A DNA stretch of 30,362 nt, taken from assembly GCA_005223085.1 (NCBI GenBank), contig NJBP01000025.1, positions 1 to 30,362 on the forward strand, written 5' to 3'. Origin of the DNA: Candidatus Aerophobetes bacterium Ae_b3b (lineage in GTDB: Bacteria; Aerophobota; Aerophobia; Aerophobales; AE-B3A). Both the position numbers and the translations under genes were made by a program. The notes under the pieces were generated by a model. It ran no database searches and was not told the DNA's origin. It saw nothing but the letters and a program-made list of their open reading frames with translations. Shown piece after piece: positions 4,319 through 29,857 of this stretch (its first letter is position 1; each line of letters opens with the position of its first letter).

Positions 4319-4333
4319 CTTTACACCTCCTTA

Positions 4334-4360: not shown

Positions 4361-4366
4361 AAAAAA

Positions 4367-6307: not shown

Positions 6308-6312
6308 TTTCT

Positions 6313-7080: not shown

Positions 7081-7093
7081 AACTTTTTCTCCT

Positions 7094-10128: not shown

Positions 10129-10159
10129 TGGTCTTTTCCCTAATTTTTCCATATCTACT

Positions 10160-10951: not shown

Positions 10952-10974
10952 TTTAATCACTATATAATTGTCTA

Positions 10975-10991
10975 TGCAATTTTTATACCAA
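10975..10991 (-). promoter_or_regulatory. Sigma-54-type promoter upstream of the signalling/hydBGDA operon
   Basis: The minus strand reads TTGGTATAAAAATTGCA: GG and GC dinucleotides exactly ten bases apart with the full TTGCA -12 box, matching YTGGCACGRNNNTTGCW at most conserved positions. The predicted start is near 10964, leaving a very short leader to the ATG at 10951 (or GTG at 10960). It lies between an intrinsic terminator and the double-receiver gene, and an NtrC-type activator is encoded immediately upstream. A weak sigma-70 reading of the same AT-rich stretch cannot be excluded. Confidence 0.55.
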
Positions 10992-11005
10992 ATTTTCTGA
11001 AGTTA

Positions 11006-11037
11006 CAAAAAAACCACCCGCTAGGCTCCGGGTGGTT
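11006..11037 (-). terminator. Rho-independent terminator after the NtrC-type regulator gene
   Basis: A perfect 9-bp stem (AACCACCCG / CGGGTGGTT, 11012-11020 with 11029-11037) and 8-nt loop, followed on the minus-strand transcript by a run of seven U (plus-strand A-run 11007-11013). It lies 42 bp beyond the regulator's stop codon and separates the sensor operon from the double-receiver/hydBGDA operon. Confidence 0.85.
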
Positions 11038-11078
11038 GATAAATAAAGAGCTATCAGTATATATTAATCTTTTTTCTT

Positions 11079-15312: not shown

Positions 15313-15328
15313 CTTTTATGTCCTTGAA

Positions 15329-16300: not shown

Positions 16301-16337
16301 AATGTCTCCTCTCTCTTCGAACCACAAATCCACCATC

Positions 16338-16365
16338 ATTATAGAAGATCATAGAAACTAGTCAA
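16338..16365 (-). promoter_or_regulatory. Sigma-70 promoter of the hydrogenase-sensor operon
   Basis: On the minus strand, TTGACT (16360-16365), a 16-bp spacer, then TATAAT (16338-16343). The expected start near 16331 gives a leader of about 31 nt to the ATG at 16300. Only one base differs from the double consensus, so the sensor block is probably expressed constitutively at a fair level. Confidence 0.75.
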
Positions 16366-16820
16366 ACTACATTGATGGTACCAGAAAAGTATTTAGAAGA
16401 TTTATACGCGTATCGAGGGACTTTCCCCAAAGGAGCCTTATATCAGCCACCTTAACGAGTCAGCTCTGCAGGCTTTGAATTTAGGGGGAGCAGTGAGCGA
16501 AGCGAGCGTTGAGGGGGAATGTTTTCCCCCTCAAGAATAGTTGAGGAAAAGAAAGACGTGATGTCTGAGGAGCGAAGCGACGAGCTCTGCCTGTTTTTGA
16601 ATTTGGGGGGAGCAGCGTAGCGTCGAGGGGGGATGTTTCCCCCCTCGAGATCCTCATGTCTTTCCCGAAACGAGAAGACGAGCAGAAGCAATCCAAAGTC
16701 GATATACAGCGACGAAGGGGAAGAGTCCCGAGATATTTCTTGATAAGGAAAGGAGTTGTGGGTAAAAAATCTATTTGTATCTAACTTTCGCAACTTCGCA
16801 CGCCTGGATTTGGAATTTTC
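16366..16820. other. Divergent intergenic region with hairpin repeats and no supported gene
   Basis: This gap separates the minus-strand sensor operon from the plus-strand energy-converting hydrogenase operon. It contains two hairpin-bearing repeats (16460-16649), a short plus-strand open frame (16656-16784) that ends at TAA in the frame of the following HydB-like gene, and an AAAGGAG motif near 16748 not followed by a useful start codon. I found no convincing plus-strand promoter. The region takes the place where the N-terminal 70 or so codons of the HydB-like gene would be expected. Confidence 0.6.
16460..16649. repeat. Two direct repeats each with an 11-bp perfect hairpin and TGTT loop
   Basis: Copy A (about 16460-16535) and copy B (about 16581-16649) share AGCTCTGC, TTTGAATTT, GGGGGAGCAG and a terminal hairpin. 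Hairpin A is TTGAGGGGGAA/TTCCCCCTCAA (16509-16519 with 16524-16534); hairpin B is TCGAGGGGGGA/TCCCCCCTCGA (16623-16633 with 16638-16648). Both loops are TGTT, and the stem differences are compensatory. Copy B is also bracketed by imperfect arms (AAAGAC..TGAGGA and TCCTCATGTCTTT). Neither hairpin is followed by a U-run, so terminators are unlikely; a REP/MITE-type element or structured RNA fits better. Confidence 0.75.
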
Positions 16821-17642
16821 TTGGGTGAATATTTCGCTTCAAATTTTACCTCTTCCAGCGAGGAGAAAATTATCCTGGGAGCAAAGACATGCGATCTGGA
16901 ATCCTTGAGAATCCTGGACAGCGTTTACGCCAATGGAGATTTTAAAGACCCCTTTTATATTGAGGAAAGAGGCAATATAATCCTGATTTCCAGTGATTGT
17001 ACTAGGGCCCAAGATACGTGTTTCTGTAGTTTACTAGATCTAACTCCCTATCCCAAAGAGGGGTTTGACTTAAATCTTTCGCTGGTAGAGGGAGGTTTTG
17101 TTCTGGAAGTAGGCTCGGAAAAAGGTAAAAAAATAGTTGAGGAAAATAAGGAATTAATGGAAGAGGCAGGCGAAGAGCAATTGAGCCAAAGAGAAAAGAG
17201 ACGCCAGGATGTGCTCAATGAGGTAAAAGAAATTAACAAAGATTTTGATTCTGAGAGAAGTTTTCGAGAAGTCATAAAGGATAGCTTTAATTCTCCGGTT
17301 TGGGAAGAAGCTGTTGAGAAATGCGTGGACTGCGGCGGATGTAATCATATTTGTCCTACCTGTCGTTGTTTTCTTCTCTTTGACGAGAAAGGGAAAAAGG
17401 GGTTTAGCAGAACCTCCCTCTGGGATGCCTGTTTATATACAGGTTTTGCTCGGGTTGCCGCCGGGGCCAATCCCAGGATAAAACTTTCCCAAAGATTTGC
17501 CAATCGCCTCCTTTGTAAATTTGGCTTCTTTCCGGAAAACCTGGGACTGGATGCCTGTACTGGCTGCGGGAGATGTATCAGCGTCTGTATAGGTAAGATA
17601 GATATGAGAGAAGTGGTAAGAGATTTAAGAGTGAAAGTCTAA
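16821..17642 (+). CDS. HydB-like 4Fe-4S subunit, N-terminally short
   Basis: 273 residues homologous to HydB of the left-hand hydrogenase: EKIILGAKTCDLESL (C24), DTCFCSLL, then ferredoxin modules CVDCGGCNHICPTCRC and CTGCGRCISVC. Relative to HydB (342 residues, equivalent Cys at 96) about 72 N-terminal residues are missing. The only start is TTG at 16821 with no ribosome binding site, and the same frame is closed by TAA at 16782. It is either a 5'-truncated gene in the course of decay or a natural short form. It begins the long plus-strand operon and would act with the HydG-like flavoprotein as the NAD(P)H-side electron entry to the membrane hydrogenase. Confidence 0.75.
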   Translation: MGEYFASNFTSSSEEKIILGAKTCDLESLRILDSVYANGDFKDPFYIEERGNIILISSDCTRAQDTCFCSLLDLTPYPKEGFDLNLSLVEGGFVLEVGSEKGKKIVEENKELMEEAGEEQLSQREKRRQDVLNEVKEINKDFDSERSFREVIKDSFNSPVWEEAVEKCVDCGGCNHICPTCRCFLLFDEKGKKGFSRTSLWDACLYTGFARVAAGANPRIKLSQRFANRLLCKFGFFPENLGLDACTGCGRCISVCIGKIDMREVVRDLRVKV

Positions 17643-17657
17643 CCACGGGATGAGGAG

Positions 17658-18491
17658 ATGGAAAGTCCTTATCAACCGACAAAAGCAAAAATTTTAAAGA
17701 TAATTCCTGAAACTCCTAACATCAAGACATTTGTTCTTAAGCCCGAAGATTCCCTGGAATTTAAGGCAGGACAATTCATCCAGCTTACCGTGCCCGGATT
17801 GGGAGAGGCTCCCTTCACTCCTTCAAGCTCCCCTTATGAAAAAGAAAAGATTGAAGTTACTGTGATGAAGGTGGGTAGCGTAACTTCGGTCCTCCATAGC
17901 TTAAAAGAAGAAGATACCATAGGAATACGGGGACCTTATGGAAAGGAATATCCTCTTTCTGACTTTGAGGAGAAGGAAACCTTAATCGTGGGAGGAGGAG
18001 TAGGTCTTGCTCCTTTAAGATCACTCTTTCTTGCTCTTGCCAAAAATATCGAAAGATACAAGAAGGTTCTTTTCTGCTACGGAGCCAAAACCCCGGAGGA
18101 TATCGTCTATAAAGGGGCTGTCTTAAAGAACTGGCAAGATCTACATCCGGAAAAGATACATTTTCGCATCACCGTGGATAAGGCTGATGGAGAATGGAAA
18201 GGAAAAGTTGGATTGGTCACCACCACCCTGGACAACCTGGAGGAAGAGATCGAAGACATACAAAAAAGTCCGGTTATAGTCTGTGGACCTCCTATAATGA
18301 TGAAGTTCACTACCTTTAAGCTGCTTGATTTAGGCTACCGTCCACCCAATATTTTCCTGAGCATGGAAAAGAATATGTCCTGCGGGATAGGTAAATGTGG
18401 ACATTGTCAGACGGGAAAATACCTTGTTTGTAGAGATGGACCGGTGCTTACCTACGATAAAATAAAGGATATTCCTACTATCTGGGACTGA
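17658..18491 (+). CDS. HydG-like FAD/NAD(P)-binding reductase subunit
   Basis: 277-residue flavoprotein: FAD-binding barrel (KAGQFIQLTVPGLGEAPF, about residues 40-60), Rossmann NAD(P) site (VGGGVGLAPLRSL near 112-124; CGPPIMMKF), and C-terminal [2Fe-2S] loop CGIGKCGHCQTGKYLVC. It is a paralogue of HydG at 7094-7951 with full family length. It follows the HydB-like gene by 15 bp and precedes a polyferredoxin gene by 6 bp. In this position it should exchange electrons between NAD(P)(H) and the Fe-S chain of the energy-converting hydrogenase, taking the place that NuoE/F/G hold in complex I. ATG follows GGGATGAGGAG closely. Confidence 0.92.
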   Translation: MESPYQPTKAKILKIIPETPNIKTFVLKPEDSLEFKAGQFIQLTVPGLGEAPFTPSSSPYEKEKIEVTVMKVGSVTSVLHSLKEEDTIGIRGPYGKEYPLSDFEEKETLIVGGGVGLAPLRSLFLALAKNIERYKKVLFCYGAKTPEDIVYKGAVLKNWQDLHPEKIHFRITVDKADGEWKGKVGLVTTTLDNLEEEIEDIQKSPVIVCGPPIMMKFTTFKLLDLGYRPPNIFLSMEKNMSCGIGKCGHCQTGKYLVCRDGPVLTYDKIKDIPTIWD

Positions 18492-18497
18492 ATAAAA

Positions 18498-18980
18498 ATG
18501 GCCAAGCGACTATTTATTGATCTGGATAAATGTGCAGATTGTGAGGAATGTACGGTAAAGTGTAGATGTAGTTACCCTTATCATCCACAAAACAATGGAA
18601 TAATCTACCTCAGGGAGTGGTTACATTTCCAGCTCATTTGCCGAAAATGTGAGGATGCTCCTTGCCTTAATGCTTGTCGATATGAGGCCCTGGAGAGGTC
18701 AGAAAATGATATTATAAAAAGGAATAATTTTCTCTGTGTAGGATGCAAATCCTGTGCTCTAGCCTGTCCTTTTGGAACCATTTATTTTGAAATGATCCCC
18801 TTTCTTACCTTTAATTGTGATCTCTGCGAGGGAAGATTGGAGGAAAAAGAGATGCCTCTTTGCAGCAAAACCTGTCCCAAAGAAGCCATAGAATACGGGG
18901 ATTTTGAGGCTGATCCTAAAGGAAACAGGCATCTTTTGAACAATGTAGTGGTTCAGGTGACCCCCTGGAAAAAGGTATAA
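18498..18980 (+). CDS. Polyferredoxin electron-transfer subunit (HycB/CooF-like)
   Basis: 160-residue protein with sixteen cysteines in four groups: CADCEECTVKC (C12, 15, 18, 22), CRKCEDAPCLNAC, CVGCKSCALACP and CDLCEGRL...CSKTCP, giving four [4Fe-4S] clusters. This layout matches the HycB/HydN/CooF family that wires dehydrogenases to membrane-bound hydrogenases. It lacks membrane helices or a signal peptide. Its TAA is 3 bp before the NuoH-like start. Here it probably bridges the HydB/HydG-like diaphorase to the NuoI/NuoB-like chain. Confidence 0.9.
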   Translation: MAKRLFIDLDKCADCEECTVKCRCSYPYHPQNNGIIYLREWLHFQLICRKCEDAPCLNACRYEALERSENDIIKRNNFLCVGCKSCALACPFGTIYFEMIPFLTFNCDLCEGRLEEKEMPLCSKTCPKEAIEYGDFEADPKGNRHLLNNVVVQVTPWKKV

Positions 18981-18983
18981 GTG

Positions 18984-19913
18984 ATGGCGGCTAACATTTT
19001 TTACTTTATCGTTTTTCCTGGCTTTCTTTTTACTGCCGTGGTGGGACTCTTAGTAAGCTGGGTGGATAGAAAAATCACGGCCCGTATTCAGTGGAGGGTT
19101 GGACCTCCGTGGTATCAGAATTTCGTTGACTTTTTTAAACTTCTGGGTAAGGAAACTATTGTACCCCGGGGGGCTGGGCGGATAGGCTTTTTGTTTGCTC
19201 CCTTAATGGGGTTAATTGGAGTAACTCTGGTATCCCTCATTCTCTGGCAAATGAATCTCAATCCCAACAGGTCCTTTATGGGAGATGTTATCGTACTTAT
19301 CTACCTTTCCATTTTACCTGCTCTAGCCATCATCATAGGTGGTTCTTCCTCTGCCAATCCTCTGGGAGCTATAGGAGCATCGAGGGAGATGAAATTAATT
19401 TTGGCTGATGAACTTCCCTTTATTATGGCTATCTTTACTCCCTTGGTTAAGATTGGTAGCCTCAAGGTCGGTTCCATCATCACTTATCAGCTAAACCATG
19501 GCATGATGTTTACTCATCATCTTTCTTCGGTAATTGCCTTAGTAGTGGCCTTTTTATGTATGCAGGCAAAGCTTACCCTTGTTCCCTTTGATATACCGGA
19601 AGCTGAGCAGGAGATTATGGCCGGTCCTTATATAGAGTATTCGGGTCCTCTCCTGGCCTTATTTAAATTAACTCGGGCCATGATGTTGTTTGCTATGCCG
19701 GTTTTTCTTATCACTATCTTTTTAGGGGGGATGCAGTTTAACGGATGGGCTAGCGGCTGGTCAGTTGTTAAATATCTGGTTATCCTCATTCTCATAATAC
19801 TCCTAAAAAATACCAACCCTCGTTTGCGAATAGATCAGGCACTAAAGTTTTTCTGGCTAAGGATGTTTCCCTTATCCTGTATAGGGTTCGTTCTGGCCCT
19901 GTTGGGACTATAA
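18984..19913 (+). CDS. NuoH/MbhM-like membrane anchor subunit
   Basis: 309-residue membrane protein of the NuoH/HyfC/MbhM/EchB family, with about eight hydrophobic helices. The loop after the first helix carries DRKITARIQWRVGPPWYQN, the family signature that faces the hydrogenase module, and FDIPEAEQEIMAGPYIEYSG is the second conserved loop with its string of acidic residues. It anchors the NuoB/NuoD-like pair and forms the entry of the ion pathway. I choose ATG 18984, 8 bases after AAAGG, over GTG 18981. Confidence 0.93.
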   Translation: MAANIFYFIVFPGFLFTAVVGLLVSWVDRKITARIQWRVGPPWYQNFVDFFKLLGKETIVPRGAGRIGFLFAPLMGLIGVTLVSLILWQMNLNPNRSFMGDVIVLIYLSILPALAIIIGGSSSANPLGAIGASREMKLILADELPFIMAIFTPLVKIGSLKVGSIITYQLNHGMMFTHHLSSVIALVVAFLCMQAKLTLVPFDIPEAEQEIMAGPYIEYSGPLLALFKLTRAMMLFAMPVFLITIFLGGMQFNGWASGWSVVKYLVILILIILLKNTNPRLRIDQALKFFWLRMFPLSCIGFVLALLGL

Positions 19914-19916
19914 ACA

Positions 19917-20327
19917 ATGAACAAGCTCTGGGCATTAAAGAAATCCATCTGGGTCTATCATCTCTGTTCCGGATCATGTAATAATTGCGACATTGAGATT
20001 CTGGATTGTCTCACTCCCAAATTTGATCTGGAAAGGTTTGGTATTCTTCTGGTGGGAAGCATTCGGCATGCCGATGCGATACTAGCTACTGGGTCGATCA
20101 GCCGAAAGGCTCTTCCCAGAATAAAAAGAGTTTATGAGCAGATGCCTCAGCCCAAATTGGTCATTGCTGTGGGAGGGTGTGCCTGCAGCGGCGGAATTTT
20201 CAAAAATGCCTACAACATTGTGGGACCCTTCGATAAAATTGTCCCGGTGACTGCCTATGTTCCCGGCTGCCCTCCTAAACCGGAGGCCATCATCGATGGG
20301 GTGGTAAAGGTAATTAATAGTCTGTAG
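19917..20327 (+). CDS. NuoB-like small subunit of group 4 hydrogenase
   Basis: 136-residue small subunit holding the single proximal [4Fe-4S] cluster. All four ligands are visible: C21 and C24 in SGSCNNCDIE, one in GGCACSGG and one in PGCPPKP. Unlike the other two small subunits in this window, the CxxC pair is canonical. Length and motifs fit EchC/MbhJ/HycG. It follows the NuoH-like gene by 3 bp; the ribosome binding site is weak, so translation is probably coupled. It passes electrons to the NuoD-like catalytic subunit. Confidence 0.93.
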   Translation: MNKLWALKKSIWVYHLCSGSCNNCDIEILDCLTPKFDLERFGILLVGSIRHADAILATGSISRKALPRIKRVYEQMPQPKLVIAVGGCACSGGIFKNAYNIVGPFDKIVPVTAYVPGCPPKPEAIIDGVVKVINSL

Positions 20328-20341
20328 AAAGGAAACTTGGG

Positions 20342-20788
20342 ATGGTGCAACAAGACGTAATTAAGGAGCTTAAAGAAAAATTGGGAAAGAAAATATTAAA
20401 ATGGGAAGAAAAACCTCCCAAGAGGTATTACCTCACTATCCCCCGAGAAGATATTTTAGAGGCAGCGAATTTTATCTTTAAAAAGCAGGGGGCAAGGTTT
20501 ATCATTGAATCGGGGGTGGATACTCCCCGGGCAATGGAGATACTTTACCATTTTTCTTTTGATGAGCTGAATAAGATCGTTACCCTAAAGGTTTTGCTGC
20601 CTAAAGATAGGTGTGAAGTAGAATCTATTGCTCCGGTAATTCCTGGAGCTAGTTGGATTGAAAGAGAAATCGCCGAACTCTTAGGGGTAAAGTTTCTAAA
20701 TCATCCTGATCCTCGAAGACTATTACTTGCCGAGGACTGGCCAGAAGGAGAGTTTCCTTTAAGACAAGAGGTAAGGGAAAATCAATGA
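20342..20788 (+). CDS. NuoC-like 30 kDa-type subunit
   Basis: 148-residue protein of the complex I 30 kDa family. The conserved core near residues 96-145 (VESIAPVIPGASWIEREIAELLGVKF... HPDPRRLLLAEDWP) matches EchD/MbhK/HycE-N. It packs on the NuoD-like subunit and has no cofactor. A GAAAGGAAA site lies 8-9 bases before ATG. It overlaps the next gene by ATGA. In HycE-type enzymes this domain is fused to the large subunit; here it is separate, as in Mbh and Ech. Confidence 0.92.
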   Translation: MVQQDVIKELKEKLGKKILKWEEKPPKRYYLTIPREDILEAANFIFKKQGARFIIESGVDTPRAMEILYHFSFDELNKIVTLKVLLPKDRCEVESIAPVIPGASWIEREIAELLGVKFLNHPDPRRLLLAEDWPEGEFPLRQEVRENQ

Positions 20789-21987
20789 ACCGTAAAACCA
20801 TAATTCCCATTGGTCCTTACCATCCTTTGCAGGAAGAACCAGAGTTTTTTGAGCTGGAAATGGAAGGGGAAAAAGTTATTGATATTAATGTTCATATCGG
20901 ATACAATCACCGCTCCATAGAAAAAATAGCCGAGTCAAAGACTTTTGATCAAATGGTTTTTCTAGTAGAGAGAATCTGCGGGATATGTTCTACCTCTCAT
21001 CCCATTGCCAACTGTAATGCTGTGGAGGACTTAGCCCGAATTGAGATTCCAGAGAGAGCCAGGTATATAAGAAGTATAGTGGGGGAACTGGAAAGGCTTC
21101 ATTCGCATCTTCTATGGGCCGGATTAGCCGGACATTTCATTGGATACAATACTCTCTGGATGTGGATCTGGAAATATCGGGAGCCAATCCTGGAAATTTT
21201 TGAAGCCGTTACCGGTAACAGAAACCATTATGCCATGATGATCCCGGGAGGTGTGCGGCGAGATATAAAGGAGGAAGATATTCCCTTTCTTTCGAAAGGT
21301 CTGGATGAGGCCGAGCGAAAAATTGATATGGTAACCAAAGCAGTTCTGGATGATCCCGTACTAGCTGCTCGCCTTAAGGGAGTAGGAATTCTCTCCCGAG
21401 AGGATGCCATTAACTACTGTGCTGTAGGACCTACAGCCAGAGCCTCAGGAATACCCATTGATGTCAGACGGGATGATCCCTATGCTGCCTACGACCTGGT
21501 GGACTGGAAAATTATTACCCAGGAAGAGGGGGATGTCTTTGCCAAAGTAGTAGTCAGATTGCTTGAGTGTTTTGAATCCATTAAGATTATCCGTCAGTGT
21601 CTAAAGATGCTTCGCACCGTAAAAGGTGAGATTGCGGCCAAGGTTAAGGAAATCCCTCCCGGTGAGGGAATCGGTCATCATGAGGCTCCCAGGGGAGAGG
21701 TCTTTCACTATGTGCGCTCTGATGGATCCAATATGCCCGTCCGACTTAAGGTGAGAGCCCCTACCTATGTAAATCTTCCCACCTGTAAGGCCACCGTGCC
21801 TGGAGAGAGCGTAGCCGATGCTGCCATAATTTTAGCAGCCATTGACCCCTGTTATTGCTGCACTGAGCGAATTGTCACCATAAATAAACGTACCGGTCAG
21901 CGAGAATTAAATGGGCAGGATCTTTTGAGACTATCCCGGAAGAAGACAGAAAAAATTTGCAAGAATATGGGGAGAAGGAATGTCTAG
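20785..21987 (+). CDS. NuoD-like catalytic large subunit of group 4 [NiFe] hydrogenase
   Basis: 400 residues. Both Ni-binding pairs are present: C65/C68 in ERICGICSTSHP and C356/C359 in DPCYCCTER. This identifies an energy-converting hydrogenase, since NuoD of complex I lacks them. A 38-residue Lys/Arg-rich tail after R362 is probably removed by a maturation protease not encoded in the window. The protein reduces protons (or oxidises H2) and its conformational change drives ion transport through the membrane subunits. It overlaps NuoC by 4 bp and the first antiporter-type gene by 8 bp. Confidence 0.94.
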   Translation: MNRKTIIPIGPYHPLQEEPEFFELEMEGEKVIDINVHIGYNHRSIEKIAESKTFDQMVFLVERICGICSTSHPIANCNAVEDLARIEIPERARYIRSIVGELERLHSHLLWAGLAGHFIGYNTLWMWIWKYREPILEIFEAVTGNRNHYAMMIPGGVRRDIKEEDIPFLSKGLDEAERKIDMVTKAVLDDPVLAARLKGVGILSREDAINYCAVGPTARASGIPIDVRRDDPYAAYDLVDWKIITQEEGDVFAKVVVRLLECFESIKIIRQCLKMLRTVKGEIAAKVKEIPPGEGIGHHEAPRGEVFHYVRSDGSNMPVRLKVRAPTYVNLPTCKATVPGESVADAAIILAAIDPCYCCTERIVTINKRTGQRELNGQDLLRLSRKKTEKICKNMGRRNV

Positions 21988-23389
21988 CTGGTATCTAATG
22001 CTGAGTATCTTCGTTCCTTTGCTAGGGTCGCTGTTCTGTCTGGTATTTCCCGGAAAGATCAGGGGTGTCTGGTCAGTCATAGTTGTCTCTCTTTCTTTTG
22101 TTTTTCTTCTTTTCCTGCTTCCCTCCATCATGCTAGGGGAGGTGATAAGAGTTAATCTCGGGGTTTCAGCCACCGGATTTTTCAGCTTTTCCTTCCTTGC
22201 CGATGGAATAAGTCTCATCTTTGCCCTGGTATTTTCCTTCATTGGGATAATTATCCTCTTATACTCCCTAACCTACATAAAGCCTTACCATAATCAGAAG
22301 GAATATTACTTTATAACTACCTTGATGATTGGATCTCTGGTGGGAATTTCATTCTCGGCCAATTTAATGCTGCTTTATATCTTCTGGGAGGTTGCTGCTT
22401 TATCAGCCTGGCGACTTTATGGCTTCTTTAGAGGTAAAAAGGAGGTCATTTTTGCCAACAAGGCATTCTTGCTAACCTTTCTCGGTTCATCTTTTATGCT
22501 TTTAGGATTTATTCTCATTTATCAAGCAAGAGCCACCTTAGACCTGGTAGTTCTTCGAGGACAACCCGTATCTAACTTAGCTCTTTTCTTCATTCTTCTG
22601 GGAATAATTGCTAAATCTGCTACTTTGCCTATTCAAGTATGGATGCCTGATGCTTATTCAGGAGCACCCTCTCCTGTCTGTGCTCTTTCATCGGCCCTCA
22701 TAGCCAAAATTGGGGTCTTTGCTTTTGTGCGAATTTTTCTGTTTACTTTTACCGTTTCCTGGGACTGGATTTTGTGGCTGGCGGTTATTTCTTCGCTCCT
22801 TGGGGCAGCAGCCGCCCTAAGGGAAAAGAACATCAAAAGAATTATCGCTTATTCCACTATATCTCAAATTGGCTTTATCCTTCTGGGCTTGGCTCTAGTG
22901 GGGAAGATTGGACTTTTAGCTGGACTTTTGTACTTTGTTATTCATGCGGTGGGGAAAACTGGTCTTTTCTTAGGGGCTGGGATAGTAGAGCAAAGATGTA
23001 AAGAAGGCAACCTTGACAAACTGGGAGGCCTGGCTAAGGCAATGCCCGTTACCGCGGCAGGATTTCTCTTCTGCAGCCTTTCTATTATGGGCTTTCCTCC
23101 CTTTGGGGGTTTTTATGCCAAGCTCATGGTGATTTTGGCCATAGTGAAAGAAGGCCATTTCTGGATTGCTGGTCTGGCTATATTTACTGCTATCCTCACT
23201 ATGCTCTATCTATTCAGGTTGTTTAATGGAATCTTTTTAGGCCAAAGAGAAATCTCTTTCAGTTCTAAGGGCCGTGGATCTATGGTTGCCTGTGTGCTTT
23301 TTTTAGGCATTGTCTCTTTAGCTATAGGCCTTTTTATTGGCCAGCTCCTGGGTCTACCCAACATTGCAGTAGCCCAGATTTTCAGATGA
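21980..23389 (+). CDS. NuoM/NuoN-like antiporter-type membrane subunit
   Basis: 469 residues, about 13-14 hydrophobic helices, of the proton-conducting antiporter family. Key charges are present: E137 in LYIFWEVAAL (TM5 Glu), K212 in IIAKSATLPIQVWMPDAYSG (TM7 Lys), and Lys in LIAKIG and HAVGKTG further on. These support a working ion channel. The start overlaps NuoD; GAGAAGGA precedes ATG. It is an additional channel beyond the single MrpD-type one found in classical Mbh, and the gene is absent from the Mrp block further on. Confidence 0.9.
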   Translation: MSSWYLMLSIFVPLLGSLFCLVFPGKIRGVWSVIVVSLSFVFLLFLLPSIMLGEVIRVNLGVSATGFFSFSFLADGISLIFALVFSFIGIIILLYSLTYIKPYHNQKEYYFITTLMIGSLVGISFSANLMLLYIFWEVAALSAWRLYGFFRGKKEVIFANKAFLLTFLGSSFMLLGFILIYQARATLDLVVLRGQPVSNLALFFILLGIIAKSATLPIQVWMPDAYSGAPSPVCALSSALIAKIGVFAFVRIFLFTFTVSWDWILWLAVISSLLGAAAALREKNIKRIIAYSTISQIGFILLGLALVGKIGLLAGLLYFVIHAVGKTGLFLGAGIVEQRCKEGNLDKLGGLAKAMPVTAAGFLFCSLSIMGFPPFGGFYAKLMVILAIVKEGHFWIAGLAIFTAILTMLYLFRLFNGIFLGQREISFSSKGRGSMVACVLFLGIVSLAIGLFIGQLLGLPNIAVAQIFR

Positions 23390-23396
23390 GGTAAAA

Positions 23397-25322
23397 ATGA
23401 GTTCCCATATTCTCCTATATCCTCTGTTTTTACCGCTGATAGCCGGGATTGCATGCCTTTTAATCCCTAGGAAGGGAATAAAAGAGGGTCTTTCTATAGT
23501 GGTGAGCTTGACTGCTTTCATTTTAGCTCTCATTATCTTTACTGCTAAGGAGCTAGTCTTCACCAGACCCTGGCTTTCCATCCTGGGAGGAATAAACTTT
23601 TCCCTGCGAAGTTATCACTTTTCCTCCTTTATCCTTGTTTTTCTCACCCTTTTTGGCTTCCTGATCTGCCTTTATTCAGCAAAGTTCATGAGCGGGAGAA
23701 AAAGGTTAAGGGAATATTATGCCTATCTTTTATGGACGATTGGTGCCTCCAGTGGAGCTATTTTAGCCAATAACTTTATTCTATTCCTCGTGTTCTGGGG
23801 AGCTCTGGCTCTATTACTATATGGTCTTCTTTCTCTTGGTTCTTATCGATTAGCTACTAAAGGGATATTTATCATTGGAGCAGCCGATTTTGCCTTCATT
23901 CTGGGAGTGCTCTTCCTTTATAAGCTCAGCGGAACTTTCCAGATGAACCAACTGGGTCCTATTTCTCTTACCAGTCCTCTCTCCATTAGTGCTTTTATCT
24001 TGCTCATGATAGGAGCTATGGCCAAAGCAGGGACTATGCCTTTCCACACCTGGATACCCGATGCGGCAGAAGAGGCTCCTCTACCGGTAATGGCTCTCTT
24101 GCCTGCTTCTCTGGATAAACTCCTCGGTATTTATCTTTTGTCCCGGATTTGTCTGGACTTCTTTAGATTGATCCCTAACTCAGGGTTGAGTATTCTCTTG
24201 ATGATCATTGGCTCCTTTACCATCATCGCGGCAGTAATGATGGCCTTAATACAACACAACTTAAAAAGGCTTCTCTCTTATCATGCAGTGAGCCAGGTGG
24301 GATATATGGTTTTGGGTATAGGAACAGGGATTCCAGTAGCGGTAGCAGGGGGGATATTTCACATGTTAAACAATGCCATCTATAAATCGTCCCTTTTTTT
24401 AGGAGGTGGCGCGGTTGAGCACAGGATGAAAACCACCGATCTGGATAGACTGGGAGGTCTGGCTAAGCTAATGCCTGTCACTTTTATCACCTTTTTTATA
24501 GCTGCTCTCTCCATCTCCGGAGTTCCTCCCTTTAATGGCTTTTTTTCAAAATGGATGATCTATCAAGGAGTAGTGGAATTGGGAAAGTTTGGAGGCACAG
24601 GGAATTTATGGATCCTGTGGCTTCTGGCAGCTATGTTCGGCTCAGCTTTAACCTTAGCCAGTTTTATGAAACTTGTCCATGCCACATTCCTGGGTACCTC
24701 TTCCAGTTCCCCGCCAAAAAATGCCTACTCAAGTCCCAAAGAGGTAGGTCTTTCTATGACTATTCCTATGGTGATTCTGGCTTCCCTATGTATTGGCTTT
24801 GGGATCTTTGCTTATCGCCTGCCCCTGAGGTTGTTCATTCTTGCTTCAGTTCCCGGGATACCCTCTCCGGCGGAGTGGATGGGATGGTGGCAGCCAGGTT
24901 TAGCTACTGGCTTGATCATTGTTGGCATTATTATAGGAGCCATAATTTACCTTTTAAGCAAAGTAAGACTGTTTCGTGAAAGTACCTCCTATATCGGGGG
25001 AGAGGAAGTGAGCCCCGAGATGAAGGTCTCCGGGGTTGATTTTTATGATACGGTAAGAAACTTTTCCGGACTGAGCAAGATTTATGAGGCGGCGGAAAAG
25101 AAAAAATTAGATTTTTATGATTGGGGTATGGTGGTCTGTAAGGCCGTGGCCTATATCCTTCAGGTTCTAGATCGAGCCGTAGACTATATCTGGCGGGGCC
25201 TCGCTTATCTAGCCGTTTTAGGAGGAAAGGGAGCGAGCTTCTTGCACAGCGGAATTCTTCATACTTATCTGGCCTGGTGCCTGATAGGTCTTATCCTGTT
25301 GCTTTTAATTTTCTTATTATAG
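23397..25322 (+). CDS. NuoL/MrpA-like antiporter-type subunit with C-terminal extension
   Basis: 641 residues. The 14-helix antiporter core spans about 1-480 with K210 in GAMAKAGTMPFHTWIPDA and HMLNNAIYKSSLFL. The TM5 Glu that is part of the ion path is Gly135 here (LVFWGALAL). Residues 500-641 add a helix, a long amphipathic stretch (VDFYDTVRNFSGLSKI...) and a final helix, as in NuoL/HyfB lateral-helix extensions. The next gene supplies the DUF4040 portion that is fused to this domain in true MrpA, so this looks like a split MrpA. GAGGT precedes ATG. Confidence 0.9.
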   Translation: MSSHILLYPLFLPLIAGIACLLIPRKGIKEGLSIVVSLTAFILALIIFTAKELVFTRPWLSILGGINFSLRSYHFSSFILVFLTLFGFLICLYSAKFMSGRKRLREYYAYLLWTIGASSGAILANNFILFLVFWGALALLLYGLLSLGSYRLATKGIFIIGAADFAFILGVLFLYKLSGTFQMNQLGPISLTSPLSISAFILLMIGAMAKAGTMPFHTWIPDAAEEAPLPVMALLPASLDKLLGIYLLSRICLDFFRLIPNSGLSILLMIIGSFTIIAAVMMALIQHNLKRLLSYHAVSQVGYMVLGIGTGIPVAVAGGIFHMLNNAIYKSSLFLGGGAVEHRMKTTDLDRLGGLAKLMPVTFITFFIAALSISGVPPFNGFFSKWMIYQGVVELGKFGGTGNLWILWLLAAMFGSALTLASFMKLVHATFLGTSSSSPPKNAYSSPKEVGLSMTIPMVILASLCIGFGIFAYRLPLRLFILASVPGIPSPAEWMGWWQPGLATGLIIVGIIIGAIIYLLSKVRLFRESTSYIGGEEVSPEMKVSGVDFYDTVRNFSGLSKIYEAAEKKKLDFYDWGMVVCKAVAYILQVLDRAVDYIWRGLAYLAVLGGKGASFLHSGILHTYLAWCLIGLILLLLIFLL

Positions 25323-25330
25323 AGGAGAAA

Positions 25331-25858
25331 ATGTTACCACTTTATTTATTATTATTCTTAATGATCCTTGGGTCATTAGTAGCTGTCCATACCAGAACCC
25401 TTCTTTCGGCTGTTATCTCCTTATCACTGGTCGGGCTAGTTTTGTGTGTAACCTTCCTTTACCTTCAGACTCCTGACATTGCCATCACTCAGATTATAGT
25501 AGAGATTGTGGCTCTGGTTATTTTAATTAGAGCCGTAGCTACAGGAAAGGAAGTAAGTGATATTAAGGGGAAAAAAGAGGTCTTTAGCCTGGTAGCCGTG
25601 ATCGCCTTTATTGTTATTTTCGGATATTTCGCCTACCAGGCTCTCACCTTTATTGAATTTCCCAAATTTGGCTATCCCCTGATGAGAGTATCTCAATTTT
25701 ACGTTGAGGAGGGATTGAAAAAGACAGGTTCGGCAAATCTTATTACTTCAGTAGTATTAGGATTCAGGGCTTACGATACCTTAGGAGAGGTAACGGTTCT
25801 CTTTGCCGCCGTCCTGGGAACCCTAGTAATCTTAAGAGGGGTGGGAAGGAAAAAATGA
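25331..25858 (+). CDS. DUF4040/MbhD-MbhE-type membrane subunit
   Basis: 175-residue membrane protein combining two pieces normally found at the C-terminus of MrpA: a DUF4040 part with LQTPDIAITQIIVEIVAL (acidic residue in a membrane helix) and an MbhE-like part with ANLITSVVLGFRAYDTLGE. Helices at about 2-22, 24-45, 50-66, 78-99 and 132-170. Start at ATG 25331 behind GAGGAG; an earlier in-frame codon inside the previous gene has no site. In Mbh this pair helps form the Na+ pathway. Confidence 0.88.
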   Translation: MLPLYLLLFLMILGSLVAVHTRTLLSAVISLSLVGLVLCVTFLYLQTPDIAITQIIVEIVALVILIRAVATGKEVSDIKGKKEVFSLVAVIAFIVIFGYFAYQALTFIEFPKFGYPLMRVSQFYVEEGLKKTGSANLITSVVLGFRAYDTLGEVTVLFAAVLGTLVILRGVGRKK

Positions 25859-26301
25859 AAGGAATGACCATAATCGTAAAAACCATAACTAAATTTCTTT
25901 CTCCTCTAATTATCCTCTTTGGTGTCTATATCGTGCTGCATGGACATCTTACTCCGGGAGGAGGATTTCCTGGAGGAGTGATGATTGCCTCTTGTTTTAT
26001 TCTTCTTACTCTAGCTTACGGAAAGGAGATTGCTTATAAAAAATTAAAAAGATCAACCAGTTCTGTAATAGAAAGCTTAGGTGTCCTCATCTTTCTTATT
26101 CTTGCCCTTCTGGGAATTTTCGTGGGGGGCTACTTTTTCTTGAACTTTCTTCCCCTGGGACATCCTTTGAAAATAATTAGTGCCGGTATTATTCCTCTTT
26201 GTTATATCGGTGTGGGACTGGAGGTGGCAGGAGCAATATTTGCCGTATTTTTGGCCCTGGTTCTCTTCAAAGCTGGTGAAGAGAAGGAGAAGCCCCAATG
26301 A
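25855..26301 (+). CDS. mnhB: MrpB/MnhB-like subunit
   Basis: 148 residues, four hydrophobic helices. The family signature HGHLTPGGGFPGGVM follows the first helix (residues 29-43). It overlaps the DUF4040 gene and the next gene by 4 bp each (ATGA), so it is translationally coupled on both sides. In Mrp antiporters and Mbh this subunit packs with MrpC and the DUF4040 part to form the proposed Na+ site. Confidence 0.92.
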   Translation: MKGMTIIVKTITKFLSPLIILFGVYIVLHGHLTPGGGFPGGVMIASCFILLTLAYGKEIAYKKLKRSTSSVIESLGVLIFLILALLGIFVGGYFFLNFLPLGHPLKIISAGIIPLCYIGVGLEVAGAIFAVFLALVLFKAGEEKEKPQ

Positions 26302-26633
26302 TATTTTTCTTGTGCTTTGTAATTTTTCTTATTGGCCTTTACTGTGTTATTGTCAAAAAGAATATCTTAAAAATAGTGATAGGAATAGCCATTATGGAAT
26401 ATGCGGTGAATCTTTTTTTAATTCTTCTGGGCTATCGCTGGGAAGGAGTCCCGGCCATAGTAACAGAGACAGTTACCCAGGCAAAGTTTGTTGATCCTCT
26501 GCCCCAGGCACTGGTTCTCACGGCTATAGTTATAAGTATAGCTACCTTAGCCCTGATGGTATCTCTTTGTATCCGAATTCACCAGAGATATAAAACATTT
26601 GATATAACCAAAATTCGCAGGTTAAAAGGATAG
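26298..26633 (+). CDS. mnhC: MrpC/MnhC (NuoK-like) subunit
   Basis: 111 residues with three helices, homologous to NuoK. The first helix runs FFLCFVIFLIGLYCVIVKKN; IAIMEYAVNLFLILLGY carries the membrane Glu conserved in NuoK/MrpC; VDPLPQALVLTAIVI is the typical third-helix start. Overlaps the previous gene by 4 bp and precedes MrpD by 5 bp. Confidence 0.92.
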   Translation: MIFFLCFVIFLIGLYCVIVKKNILKIVIGIAIMEYAVNLFLILLGYRWEGVPAIVTETVTQAKFVDPLPQALVLTAIVISIATLALMVSLCIRIHQRYKTFDITKIRRLKG

Positions 26634-26638
26634 TCCAA

Positions 26639-28120
26639 ATGAATTTGATCCCCCTCTTTATAGCCGTTCCTTTAGGAGTTGCCTTTATTCTAGCCCTTTT
26701 AGGAAAATTTAAGGAAGTGGTGAGCGATCTTCTGGCAGCTCTTTGTACTCTTAGCCTGGCTATTCTCTCCTTTGTCCTCATTGGTCAACTTAAGACACAC
26801 GGAATCTTTGTCTACACCGTGGGTAAGTGGACTCCACCCTGGGGGATAAATCTGGTTCTCGATGGACTAAGTCTATTGATGTTGATTATTATAAATACGG
26901 TTGCCTTTTTAGTCATCATTTATTCGGTCAGTTACATGAAGAAATTTACCGCTAAGTCTAGATACTATGCTCTATTTTTGCTCATGCTGGCCGGAATGAA
27001 TGGGGTAGTCTTAACGGGAGACTTCTTTAACCTCTTTGTCTTCTCGGAAATTGCCGCTATCTCCTCCTATGCACTGGTGGCTTTTGGAGTAGAGGCAGAG
27101 GAGCTGGAGGCATCCTTCAAGTATATGGTTATGGGATCAATTGCTTCTATTCTTATCCTCTTTTCAGTGGGGTTGCTTTATGGTCTCACCGGAAGCCTTA
27201 ATATGGCTGATGTGGGAAGGATGATTCAGGGAAGAAGGAACGTCCTTCTTTCCTTCTCTATGACTCTCTTTTTAGCTGGTTTTGGACTGAAGGCAGCCGT
27301 AATTCCTTTCCATGCCTGGCTTCCCGATGCTCATCCCAGCGCTCCTGCTCCCATTTCAGCAATGCTGTCCGGGGTTTTGATCAAGGCTCTGGGGGTCTAT
27401 GCCTTGATGCGGATTTTCTTCAATGTCTTCGGTATGGGTCTTCAGCTTTACTGGACCTTTATGATTTTAGGATGCGTCTCTATGATAGGAGGAGGCCTAT
27501 TAGCTTTAAGACAGGAAGACCTCAAAAGGCTCCTTGCCTATTCCTCTATCTCTCAGATTGGCTATATAATTTTGGGTTTGGGATGTGGTAATTACTGGGG
27601 CATTATGGGAGCGCTTTTCCACCTTTTGAATCACGCTTCTTTCAAATCGCTTCTCTTTTTGAATTCCGGCGCGGTGGAATACTCTACCGGAACGAGAAAA
27701 CTGGAGAAGATGGGGGGCTTAAGTAAGGTGATGCCGGTCACAGGGGCTACCTCAACCATTGCCTCTTTATCCATTTCTGGAATTCCTCCTTTTAACGGAT
27801 TCTGGAGTAAGCTCTTCATTATCATCGGCCTTATTCAGGCAGGGCACTTTGTCCTGGCTGTTATAACTATTCTGGCTTCCGTTTTGACCCTGGCCTATTA
27901 CCTGAGGATGCAAAGATACGCCTTTTTTGGAGAACTAAAGGAGGGCCTGGAGAAAATAAAGGAGGCTCCTTTTTTGATGGGTTTTTCCGTGATAGTCCTG
28001 GCCATAATTTGCCTGGGGGTGGGGATTCTCTTTTACCCGGTAATGAAGATCGTACTGGAACCAGCAGTGGAGGTTCTACAGGAAGGGATAAGATATAGCA
28101 GCCTTGTCCTGGGAGGATAA
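26639..28120 (+). CDS. mnhD: MrpD/MnhD-like antiporter subunit
   Basis: 493 residues with about 14 helices. Ion-path residues are present: E137 in LFVFSEIAAISSYAL (TM5), K218 in GFGLKAAVIPFHAWLPDAHP (TM7), K in VLIKALGVY, and HLLNHASFKSLLFL. The LPDAHPSAPAPISAMLSG segment is typical of MrpD/MbhH rather than NuoM. The start site is weak (GGATAGTCC), 5 bp after the previous stop. It is the third antiporter-type subunit of the operon. Confidence 0.93.
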   Translation: MNLIPLFIAVPLGVAFILALLGKFKEVVSDLLAALCTLSLAILSFVLIGQLKTHGIFVYTVGKWTPPWGINLVLDGLSLLMLIIINTVAFLVIIYSVSYMKKFTAKSRYYALFLLMLAGMNGVVLTGDFFNLFVFSEIAAISSYALVAFGVEAEELEASFKYMVMGSIASILILFSVGLLYGLTGSLNMADVGRMIQGRRNVLLSFSMTLFLAGFGLKAAVIPFHAWLPDAHPSAPAPISAMLSGVLIKALGVYALMRIFFNVFGMGLQLYWTFMILGCVSMIGGGLLALRQEDLKRLLAYSSISQIGYIILGLGCGNYWGIMGALFHLLNHASFKSLLFLNSGAVEYSTGTRKLEKMGGLSKVMPVTGATSTIASLSISGIPPFNGFWSKLFIIIGLIQAGHFVLAVITILASVLTLAYYLRMQRYAFFGELKEGLEKIKEAPFLMGFSVIVLAIICLGVGILFYPVMKIVLEPAVEVLQEGIRYSSLVLGG

Positions 28121-28121
28121 A

Positions 28122-28610
28122 GTGAAAAGACTAGCGCTTTTTATTGTCTCATTTCTTTGCTGGATGGTCCTTACCTGGACACTGTACTTGCCTTCAGTTT
28201 TAATCGGGCTGGGCCTAGCTATCCTCGTTAGCTTCTGGTTTGCCGATTTATTCATCCAGGAGCCCCGAAAATTTTTCCAGATCAAACGCCTGGCCTTTTT
28301 CCTTTATTATATACCTATCTTCACCTATTATTGTATTATGGCCAATCTGGATGTTGCTTACCGGGTTCTTCACCCTAGACTTCCCATCAAGCCGGGTATT
28401 GTGAAAGTTAAGACCTCTCTTAAAACCCCGACCGGGAGAGTTGCTCTGGCCAATTCTATTACCCTTACTCCCGGTACTTTATCGGTTGAGATAACTGAGG
28501 AGGGTTATCTTTATGTACACTGGATTATGGTGAGGACAACCGATATAAAAGAGGCTACCGAGAGGATTGTGCGCAAGTTTGAGCCCATTCTTAAGGAGAT
28601 TTTTGAATGA
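28122..28610 (+). CDS. mnhE: MrpE/MnhE-like subunit
   Basis: 162 residues from GTG 28122, 5 bases after GGGAGG and one base after the MrpD stop; a longer frame from TTG 28104 lies inside mnhD and lacks a site. Two to three N-terminal helices precede a cytoplasmic domain with VALANSITLTPGTLSVEI, the MrpE signature. Structural part of the Mrp membrane arm; overlaps mnhF by 4 bp. Confidence 0.92.
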   Translation: MKRLALFIVSFLCWMVLTWTLYLPSVLIGLGLAILVSFWFADLFIQEPRKFFQIKRLAFFLYYIPIFTYYCIMANLDVAYRVLHPRLPIKPGIVKVKTSLKTPTGRVALANSITLTPGTLSVEITEEGYLYVHWIMVRTTDIKEATERIVRKFEPILKEIFE

Positions 28611-28876
28611 TGACCAATGTTCCTTTTATTTTCTCGCTTCTTCTAATTGTCTGCTGTTTTTTATGTCTTTATCGAATCTTCAGAGGTCCCACTTCTGCTG
28701 ACAGAATTGTAGCCGTAGATATTTTAGGAATTCTGGTAGTCGGTTTTTGTGCCCTTTTCGCCGTCTATACTCCCAGAAAATTCTTTATGGATATTGCCAT
28801 TGTCTGGGTTCTTCTAGGCTTTATCGGAGCTTTGGCTCTAGCCAAATATCTGGAGGGTAAGGGATTCGATGAGTGA
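28607..28876 (+). CDS. mnhF: MrpF/MnhF-like subunit
   Basis: 89 residues, three helices, with RGPTSADRIVAVDILG, the MrpF signature including the Asp residues next to helix 2. ATG overlaps the MrpE stop (ATGA). Overlaps mnhG by 8 bp. Confidence 0.92.
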   Translation: MMTNVPFIFSLLLIVCCFLCLYRIFRGPTSADRIVAVDILGILVVGFCALFAVYTPRKFFMDIAIVWVLLGFIGALALAKYLEGKGFDE

Positions 28877-29195
28877 AATAGTGGTAATTTTAGGAAACGT
28901 ATTTATCGTGGTGGGGCTTCTTTTTGATTTACTTGGCTGCATAGGTCTGGTGAGACTACCCGATGTTTATAATCGCCTCCAGGCTTCTACCAAGTGCGTA
29001 ACTCTGGGAACCTGCTTCATTCTCTTTGGAAGCTTTCTCTTAATGGGTTTTTTATGGAAGGCTATCCTGGCCATCGCTTTTGTAGTAATGACTTCACCCA
29101 CTGGAGCCCATGCTATTGCTCATGCCGCTCATCACTCCGGAATCAAGCTCTGGAAGAAGAGCGTGGTGGACAGGTATGAGGAAGACAAAAAATGA
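28869..29195 (+). CDS. mnhG: MrpG/MnhG-like subunit
   Basis: 108 residues, three helices, with GLVRLPDVYNRLQASTK and TSPTGAHAIAHAAHHSG, both characteristic of MrpG. It completes the Mrp set A(split)-B-C-D-E-F-G. Overlaps the NuoI-like gene by 4 bp. Confidence 0.92.
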   Translation: MSEIVVILGNVFIVVGLLFDLLGCIGLVRLPDVYNRLQASTKCVTLGTCFILFGSFLLMGFLWKAILAIAFVVMTSPTGAHAIAHAAHHSGIKLWKKSVVDRYEEDKK

Positions 29196-29857
29196 AATAT
29201 CCTAAACTCCGAGAGCTAAAAGAGGCATTTACAGCTTTGGTAAAGGGTCCTTACACTACGAAATTCCCTAAGGTCCCTTCTCCGGCGGCTCCTGCTTACC
29301 GGGGAAAGCCAGAGTTCAATCTCGAGGAATGTGTGGTTTGCGGCGCTTGTGCCAATGTCTGTCCGGCAGAAGCCATAGAGGTAATTGAGACACCTCCCCA
29401 AGGAAAAGAGGCGAGTGGGGTAGAGAAAGAAACCGAAAGTGAGCTTCCCCCACCAGGTTCTCGCAGAGTCATTCTCCATTATGATAACTGTATCTTCTGC
29501 GGACAATGTGAGGTCCACTGTCTCACTGAAAAGGGGGTTCATCTAACGCAAAAGTATGATTTAGCTGTCCTCGATAGAAAAGAGTGTATAGAAAAGGTGG
29601 AGGACAAGCTCGTTTTCTGTGAGCATTGTGGAGCAGCTATAGCTACCCAGAAGCACCTTCACTGGCTGGTGGAAAGACTTGGTCCTCAGGTCTTTTCCAA
29701 CCCCAATCTATTTCTAGCTTCCCATGAGGAGATAAAGCTCATGGAAAAAGGACTGCCCAGAGAAAAGGGACTTCCCTTAGGGCGTTTTGACCACTTAAGG
29801 ATTCTCTGCCCCAAATGTAGAAAGCAGCTTACCCTCAAAGAAGAATGGGGATATTAG
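29192..29857 (+). CDS. NuoI-like 2[4Fe-4S] ferredoxin subunit with C-terminal CxxC pairs
   Basis: 221 residues, last gene of the operon. Cluster 1 ligands C47/50/53/57 (CVVCGACANVCP) and cluster 2 C100/103/106/110 (CIFCGQCEVHC). Residues 68-91 between them are an acidic, Pro-rich insertion. The C-terminal part adds CEHC and CPKC, a likely zinc or extra metal site, as in HycF/HyfH-type proteins that extend NuoI. It should carry electrons from the polyferredoxin or soluble ferredoxin to the NuoB-like subunit. The start overlaps mnhG by ATGA. Confidence 0.9.
   Translation: MKYPKLRELKEAFTALVKGPYTTKFPKVPSPAAPAYRGKPEFNLEECVVCGACANVCPAEAIEVIETPPQGKEASGVEKETESELPPPGSRRVILHYDNCIFCGQCEVHCLTEKGVHLTQKYDLAVLDRKECIEKVEDKLVFCEHCGAAIATQKHLHWLVERLGPQVFSNPNLFLASHEEIKLMEKGLPREKGLPLGRFDHLRILCPKCRKQLTLKEEWGY

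What the first reader, a model, noticed from the sequence alone, without database searches (positions are those of the whole stretch)
16821..29857. Energy-converting hydrogenase carrying its own NAD(P)H module and a complete Mrp set
One operon joins HydB/HydG-like diaphorase subunits, a polyferredoxin, a NuoH/B/C/D hydrogenase core with intact Ni ligands, a NuoI-like ferredoxin, and Mrp A(split) to G. Classical Mbh uses ferredoxin only. Here the sulfhydrogenase-type diaphorase takes the place of NuoEFG, giving an NAD(P)H:H+ (or H2:NAD(P)+) ion-translocating complex intermediate between Mbh and complex I.
Basis: partly seen in the sequence, partly recalled or inferred. Interest (0 to 1): 0.74.

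Follow-up and report, generated by a model that had tools for sequence, protein, structure and literature searches.

The report
NAD(P)H-fed, sodium-antiporter-linked membrane hydrogenase operon
This operon encodes a membrane hydrogenase fused to a sodium/proton antiporter and fed by a dedicated NAD(P)H-oxidising module; the same gene set recurs in MAGs labelled with about 18 bacterial phyla, often under a control switch that senses NADH, although in this genome one subunit gene of the NAD(P)H module is damaged at its start.

Summary
In detail: 16821-29857 is one operon of HydB, HydG, a CooF/HycB-type ferredoxin, NuoH/B/C/D with all four Ni-ligand cysteines, three antiporter-like subunits, split MrpA, MrpB-G and a HycF/NuoI-type ferredoxin. 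Two corrections: hydB lacks its first ~80 codons (MITE-like repeat plus deletion), and an extra antiporter subunit (21980-23389) is present. The HydBG-CooF module is not incidental: 55 of 56 relatives with enough sequence carry HydG and CooF there, across ~18 phyla. Operon HydGs form their own clade, apart from soluble group 3b HydGs, and co-vary with the hydrogenase. New here: hydB is preceded by Rex operators (13 of 14 strong sites in 1.6% of the sequence) and rex adjoins hydB in 16 of 55 loci, tying the complex to NADH balance. AntB, the MrpA-N-like subunit, has lost the TM5 glutamate in 69 of 79 copies. Best reading: a formate-hydrogenlyase-like group 4 [NiFe] hydrogenase whose donor module was swapped for a sulfhydrogenase-type diaphorase, reversibly coupling NAD(P)H/H2 to Na+/H+ movement. 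One paper reported asrAB-cooF beside such genes in one Saganbacterium; HydDB calls group 4g 'undetermined'. 'Intermediate between Mbh and complex I' is analogy, not phylogeny.

The parts
16388..16743 (.). MITE-like repeat (about 356 bp) sitting where relatives have the hydB promoter and Rex operator; not part of the complex
   Evidence: Copies of 89-95% identity with the same two ends elsewhere in the genome; 74 partial matches
16755..16820 (+). Possible 5' stub of hydB in another frame (VKNLFVSNFRNFARL), followed by a deletion and frameshift
   Evidence: Weak by-eye similarity to the HydB N-terminus of L026; residues 1-80 not found by tblastn
16821..17642 (+). HydB/AsrA-like Fe-S subunit, N-terminally truncated (273 aa against about 350)
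   Evidence: NF040833 E 6.5e-46; best PDB match sulfhydrogenase I beta 9nez_B; all 15 family-invariant cysteines kept
17658..18491 (+). HydG/AsrB-like FAD/NAD(P)-binding [2Fe-2S] subunit
   Evidence: PF00175, PF00970, PF10418; best PDB match sulfhydrogenase I gamma 9nez_C; Cys 242/247/250/258 invariant
18498..18980 (+). CooF/HycB-type polyferredoxin
   Evidence: PF13247; PDB relatives include FHL HycB 7z0s_B; 8 Cys invariant in the family
18981..19913 (+). NuoH-like membrane subunit
   Evidence: PF00146 E 5.7e-66
19917..20327 (+). NuoB-like hydrogenase small subunit
   Evidence: NF005012 over cut-off
20342..20788 (+). NuoC-like subunit
   Evidence: PF00329
20785..21987 (+). NuoD-like [NiFe] hydrogenase catalytic subunit; C65xxC68 and C356xxC359
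   Evidence: PF00346 and PF00374; profile of the family best matches MbhL 6cfw_L (E 1.1e-109), then HycE 7z0s_E; C-terminal tail past the last CxxC
21980..23389 (+). AntA, extra antiporter-like subunit, TM5 Glu present
   Evidence: PF00361 E 1.8e-62; found in a minority of relatives
23397..25322 (+). AntB, NuoL/MrpA-N-like antiporter subunit with TM5 Glu replaced by Gly
   Evidence: PF00361; aligned to MbhH, MrpA and MrpD chains, all with Glu there
25277..25858 (+). MrpA C-terminal part (MbhD/MbhE-like)
   Evidence: NF009288 positions 610-776 of 954
25855..26301 (+). MrpB
   Evidence: NF006248 over cut-off
26298..26633 (+). MrpC
   Evidence: NF006372, 80.7 bits
26639..28120 (+). MrpD (MbhH-like), key Glu137, Lys218, Lys249 and Lys391 all present
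   Evidence: NF006240 E 5.2e-126; key residues in 57 of 57 copies
28104..28610 (+). MrpE
   Evidence: TIGR00942
28607..28876 (+). MrpF
   Evidence: NF009250
28869..29195 (+). MrpG
   Evidence: TIGR01300 over cut-off
29192..29857 (+). HycF/NuoI-type 2x[4Fe-4S] ferredoxin with Cys-rich C-terminal extension
   Evidence: NF009053 (FHL Fe-S subunit), PDB relatives 7z0s_F and 6cfw_N

Best explanation
[quoted passage not shown] Inferred path: NAD(P)H to FAD and [2Fe-2S] in HydG, to the [4Fe-4S] clusters of HydB, to the CooF/HycB-type ferredoxin, to the HycF/NuoI-type ferredoxin, to the NuoB cluster, to the NiFe site in NuoD. The reaction (NAD(P)H + H+ giving NAD(P)+ + H2, reversible) is coupled through NuoH to a full Mrp module, so that H2 formation or uptake exchanges energy with the Na+/H+ gradient. 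In the family at large the operon is repressed by Rex when NAD+ is high and switched on when NADH accumulates, so its main duty is probably NADH disposal as H2 at low H2 pressure, helped by or feeding the ion gradient. Shown: gene content, intact ligands, near-invariant linkage, own HydG clade, Rex operators, maturation genes nearby. Inferred: complex assembly, NADH as substrate, direction, ion coupling. In this particular genome hydB has lost its 5' end, so function here is uncertain.
For: HydG and CooF upstream in 55 of 56 relatives, HydB in 54 of 56, full Mrp set downstream in 42 of 44. All 67 operon HydGs are one clade (SH-aLRT 100), excluding group 3b HydGs including the window's own. HydG distances follow NuoD (r 0.82) at least as well as NuoH follows NuoD (0.73). 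CooF/HycB and HycF types are those that dock a dedicated donor in FHL. Rex operators: 13 sites of at least 13/14 in 21.6 kb upstream of hydB against 1 in 1.30 Mb elsewhere, and that one precedes rex-hydB in L059 (binomial p 8e-23). rex adjoins hydB in 16 of 55 loci (identity checked). Perfect operator in L026, same family as the window. HycI protease next to the operon in 30 loci. Own genome: no NuoEFG found (single PF01512 match is RnfC-like), an RnfD gene, V-type ATPase ring with a Na+-type motif.
Against: No biochemistry exists. Rex also controls ferredoxin-dependent Ech/Mbh-type hydrogenase in Caldicellulosiruptor bescii (PMC6391272), so Rex control alone does not prove NADH is the donor. 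NADH to H2 yields only about -5 to -16 kJ per mol at 1 Pa H2, too little for complex-I-like pumping. The window's hydB is truncated and its Rex operator is gone. Cofactor preference was not resolved.
Confidence: 0.6

Rival explanations
1. Dual-donor complex: reduced ferredoxin enters at the NuoI/HycF-type or CooF-type ferredoxin as in Mbh, and HydBG passes electrons to or from NAD(P)+ as a branch, so the complex balances ferredoxin, NAD(P)H and H2 (with or without confurcation).
For: The fuller energy budget fits ferredoxin (-28 to -51 kJ per mol); published work assumes ferredoxin for group 4g (PMC5037454; PMC8542988); Rex controls ferredoxin-dependent hydrogenases too.
Against: A CooF/HycB-type subunit, absent from Mbh by established knowledge, usually marks a dedicated donor rather than soluble ferredoxin. 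No NfnB/GltD-like bifurcating flavoprotein lies in the operon.
Confidence: 0.25
2. Ordinary ferredoxin-dependent Mrp-linked hydrogenase (Mbh-like); HydBG only shares the operon and works as a soluble ferredoxin:NAD(P)+ oxidoreductase.
For: Current annotation practice.
Against: Near-invariant linkage, separate HydG clade and co-variation across ~18 phyla; CooF always between HydBG and NuoH.
Confidence: 0.08
3. In this genome only, the complex is a decaying version: the repeat insertion and hydB deletion removed promoter, Rex operator and HydB N-terminus, leaving a hydrogenase-Mrp core without working diaphorase.
For: Truncation and repeat; no Rex-like site in the window.
Against: Every other gene is intact; all family-invariant HydB cysteines remain; could be an assembly error at a repeat.
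Confidence: 0.3

Closest known systems
Group 4g [NiFe] hydrogenases, Mrp-linked, of Omnitrophota and Cloacimonadota (PMC8542988; HydDB PMC5037454)
   Same: Same lineages, Mrp linkage and NiFe core; very likely the same family
   Different: Published as ferredoxin-coupled or of undetermined role; the conserved HydBG-CooF module and Rex operators are not mentioned in the passages read
Saganbacteria RX5A group 4 hydrogenase region with asrA, asrB, cooF and Mrp (PMC6349859)
   Same: Same gene combination; the authors suggested an oxidoreductase module and Mbh-like function
   Different: Single region, includes a molybdopterin protein that the window lacks; no systematic linkage, no regulation, donor left open
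Formate hydrogenlyase (E. coli Hyc, 7z0s) and archaeal Fdh-Mhy
   Same: HycB/CooF-type plus HycF-type ferredoxins between donor module and NuoB/NuoD-like hydrogenase
   Different: Donor is HydBG instead of formate dehydrogenase; Mrp module present; catalytic subunit in another clade
Pyrococcus Mbh (group 4d, 6cfw)
   Same: Best solved match of the catalytic subunit; Mrp subunits B-G and MrpD/MbhH
   Different: Has HydBG, CooF and an MrpA-N-like subunit, which Mbh lacks (PMC7419157)
Soluble sulfhydrogenase HydBGDA (group 3b, 9nez)
   Same: HydB and HydG are homologous
   Different: HydA/HydD replaced by a membrane group 4 hydrogenase; operon HydG is a separate clade
Respiratory complex I
   Same: NuoH/B/C/D/I-like core and antiporter subunits; diaphorase input by analogy, with a degenerate FdhA-like subunit in some relatives recalling NuoG
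   Different: Ni ligands kept, no NuoEF, no quinone chemistry expected

Membership tests
Group 4 [NiFe] hydrogenase | NuoD-like large subunit with both CxxC nickel motifs | tested here: met
   C65/C68 and C356/C359 present and invariant
Group 4 [NiFe] hydrogenase | C-terminal tail and HycI-type maturation protease | tested here: met
   Tail of about 38 aa; HycI matches in own genome and next to the operon in 30 relatives
HydDB group 4g | Placement by HydDB classifier | not testable with these tools
   Inferred from published assignments of Omnitrophota and Cloacimonadota Mrp-linked hydrogenases
Mbh (group 4d) | Catalytic subunit clusters with Pyrococcus MbhL | tested here: inconclusive
   89-row family clade excludes MbhL (SH-aLRT 99) but reference branches are long
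Mbh (group 4d) | No MrpA-N subunit and no extra donor module | tested here: not met
   AntB, HydBG and CooF present
Formate hydrogenlyase | Formate dehydrogenase subunit in the operon | tested here: not met
   None in the window operon; a low-scoring FdhA-like protein in some relatives
Formate hydrogenlyase | HycB-type and HycF-type ferredoxins | tested here: met
Complex I | NuoEF diaphorase and loss of Ni ligands | tested here: not met
   No NuoF in the genome other than an RnfC-like protein; Ni ligands kept
Group 3b sulfhydrogenase | HydA/HydD with HydB/HydG; HydG in the 3b clade | tested here: not met
   Operon HydGs form their own clade; the window's true 3b set is at 5021-8972
Mrp antiporter module | Subunits A-G with key Glu/Lys residues | tested here: inconclusive
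   All subunits present and MrpD key residues kept, but AntB lacks the TM5 Glu
Rex regulon | Operator TTGTGAAN4TTCACAA upstream of the operon | tested here: not met
   Met in relatives such as L026, L056, L064, L069 and L122 with perfect sites, but absent in the window, where a repeat sits

The most novel reading that the evidence does not exclude
A widespread, overlooked family of Rex-controlled, NADH-fed, Na+-coupled [NiFe] hydrogenases works as a minimal reversible NADH:proton oxidoreductase, and the MrpA-N-like subunit has lost its TM5 glutamate to lower the coupling ratio to fit the small NADH/H2 energy span. It would be an independent answer to the design problem of complex I, with a degenerate formate dehydrogenase subunit kept in some lineages in the way complex I keeps NuoG.
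Probability: 0.33. Interest if true: 0.8.

Novelty: new variant of a known kind. Interest (0 to 1): 0.6.

Why it matters
Group 4g hydrogenases have had no assigned role, and metabolic reconstructions of many uncultured anaerobes treat them as ferredoxin-dependent H2 producers that always build an ion gradient. If the donor is NAD(P)H, the energy books of these organisms change: the same complex would spend or barely gain ion gradient to reoxidise NADH, complementing Rnf. It would also give a second, independent example of a diaphorase joined to a NuoBCDH-Mrp core. The Rex operators and the AntB residue change make specific, cheap tests possible.

Tried and rejected
Intermediate between Mbh and complex I by descent: not supported by the tree, where long reference branches limit the resolution. 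Chance neighbourhood of HydBG and hydrogenase: rejected by 55 of 56 linkage. HydBG recruited recently from the neighbouring group 3b cluster in this genome: rejected by the HydG tree. Missing hydB 5' end located on another contig: not found. Complex I elsewhere in the genome: no further PF00361 protein, no NuoF beyond an RnfC-like one. NADH against NADPH preference from HydG residues: looked at by eye, not decidable. A Rex site in the window: none at 11 of 14 or better. A simple regular expression for the AntB TM5 position failed because of length differences and was dropped in favour of the alignment. No structure prediction was run; it would not decide the donor question.
Full report
What is there. 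The window is one end-to-end contig (C2) of an 88.6% complete, 2.04 Mb genome. From 16821 to 29857 seventeen genes run on the + strand with overlaps or gaps of a few bases. [quoted passage not shown] The large subunit keeps both nickel CxxC motifs. The three antiporter-like proteins of this operon are the only PF00361 proteins found in the genome. The single PF01512 protein is RnfC-like by inspection, not NuoF, and an RnfD gene is present. The V-type ATPase ring protein carries PGTQG, HQG and VEFYAVLG stretches of the kind known from Na+-binding rings such as Enterococcus NtpK (the comparison is from general knowledge).

HydB is truncated. Relatives have about 350 aa; the window has 273 aa beginning at an internal TTG, and from there it is 74% identical to the HydB of genome G002 in the same family. 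The first 80 residues are not found elsewhere in the assembly. A 356-bp MITE-like repeat with many copies in the genome lies at 16388-16743. Between the repeat and the ORF a short stretch in another frame resembles the HydB start by eye. The lost part holds no cysteines in the relatives read, and all 15 family-invariant HydB cysteines remain. This may be real decay or an assembly error.

Is the diaphorase part of the complex? Ten NuoD relatives from whole genomes made an alignment, and a scan of 84,980 species genomes gave 80 loci at about 59-70% identity, in MAGs labelled Omnitrophota, Bacteroidota, Cloacimonadota, Elusimicrobiota, Desantisbacteria, WOR-3, Latescibacterota, Thermotogota, Chloroflexota, Ignavibacteriota, Margulisiibacteriota, Nitrospirota, Hydrogenedentota and others, about 18 phyla by record title (MAG labels can be wrong). 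Of 56 loci with at least 5.5 kb upstream, 55 have HydG and CooF and 54 have HydB; of 44 with 9.5 kb downstream, 42 have the Mrp genes. The scan was seeded with members that have HydBG, so the figure describes this clade, not all of group 4. In a tree the family is one clade of 89 rows apart from MbhL and HycE (SH-aLRT 99; long reference branches). The 67 operon HydGs form one clade apart from Pyrococcus sulfhydrogenase and from the window's own soluble group 3b HydG. HydG and NuoD distances correlate at 0.82, against 0.73 for NuoH and NuoD. The diaphorase is thus an old, dedicated part of the system.

How it is probably wired. HydG and HydB match sulfhydrogenase gamma and beta best among solved structures. 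The CooF-like and terminal ferredoxins have relatives in formate hydrogenlyase HycB and HycF, the pair that carries electrons from formate dehydrogenase to the hydrogenase. The simplest reading is a formate-hydrogenlyase-like wiring with HydBG in place of formate dehydrogenase. In several relatives (L058, L100, L105, L118, L130, L131, L032) an FdhA-like protein of 520-615 aa, scoring well below formate dehydrogenase cut-offs, sits between HydG and CooF. This suggests descent from a formate-linked complex and parallels NuoG in complex I; that step is inference.

Regulation. In 16 of 55 loci with room upstream, rex lies next to hydB, and representative proteins pass the Rex family cut-offs. The published Rex site is TTGTGAAW4TTCACAA, released by NADH (PMC2883068). 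Sites matching at least 13 of 14 positions occur 13 times in 21.6 kb upstream of hydB and once in 1.30 Mb elsewhere; the exception precedes rex-hydB in L059 (binomial p 8e-23). Genome G002, of the window's family, has a perfect site 25 bp before hydB. The window has none, because the repeat sits there. Caution: in Caldicellulosiruptor bescii Rex also controls the ferredoxin-dependent membrane hydrogenase (PMC6391272), so this shows a link to NADH balance, not that NADH is the donor.

Energy. At 1-10 Pa H2, NADH to H2 gives about +1 to -16 kJ per mol depending on the NADH/NAD+ ratio, at most about one ion per two electrons. The complex must therefore run near equilibrium, be helped by ion inflow, run in the uptake direction at high H2, or draw on ferredoxin as well. 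In 69 of 79 AntB proteins the TM5 glutamate, present in the MbhH, MrpA and MrpD chains it aligns with, is glycine, while MrpD keeps it in 57 of 57 and AntA in 14 of 14. Reduced coupling is a possible reason; this is speculation that can be tested.

Known or new. PMC6349859 described the same combination (asrA, asrB, cooF, Mrp, group 4 hydrogenase, molybdopterin protein) once in Saganbacteria and proposed an Mbh-like function. PMC8542988 assigned Mrp-linked hydrogenases of Omnitrophota and Cloacimonadota to group 4g and assumed ferredoxin. HydDB lists 4g as undetermined, putatively ferredoxin-coupled. Searches of the held papers found no description of the conserved HydBG module, of its Rex control or of the AntB change; most subscription papers are not in that library. 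I rate it a new variant of a known kind.

Noticed in passing
window 16388-16743: MITE-like repeat family with long (about 356 bp) and short (about 210 bp) forms and 74 partial matches in this genome; imperfect inverted ends.
   Followed up: partly
window 9004-16339 (- strand): A NiFe hydrogenase pair (13789-15312 large, 15329-16339 small) lies beside a PAS histidine kinase, a sigma-54 response regulator and further receiver proteins; it looks like an H2-sensing system.
   Followed up: partly
window 5021-8972 (- strand) and G000 C8 (L042): Two separate soluble group 3b-like HydBGDA clusters in the same genome, so H2/NAD(P)H exchange without ion coupling is also possible.
   Followed up: partly
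window 351-4813 (- strand): Two MinD/ParA-type ferredoxin NTPases, NifX/FeMo-Co-like proteins with Gly/Met/Pro-rich tails, and a Fur regulator next to the group 3b genes.
   Followed up: partly
L034:6395-20000: Another HydBG-carrying group 4 complex, without Mrp E-G, with an FdhA-like subunit whose active-site region reads ARFYQAP; its HydG is the sister of the operon HydG clade.
   Followed up: partly
L028:8689-10864: In genome G014 (same order) all antiporter and Mrp genes between NuoD and the terminal ferredoxin are missing while HydBG-CooF-NuoHBCD remain; HycI, HypF, HypD, HypE, Rex and NfnAB-like genes follow.
   Followed up: no
L084:10001-11158: A NuoD of the same clade with NuoC and Fdx but no HydBG, CooF or Mrp nearby; a reduced or rearranged member.
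   Followed up: no
G000 C76 (L141) and C29 (L139): Own-genome rex lies between hypE and rnfD on C76; on C29 an MvhA/MvhG-like hydrogenase sits with methylenetetrahydrofolate reductase genes and a HycI protease.
   Followed up: no
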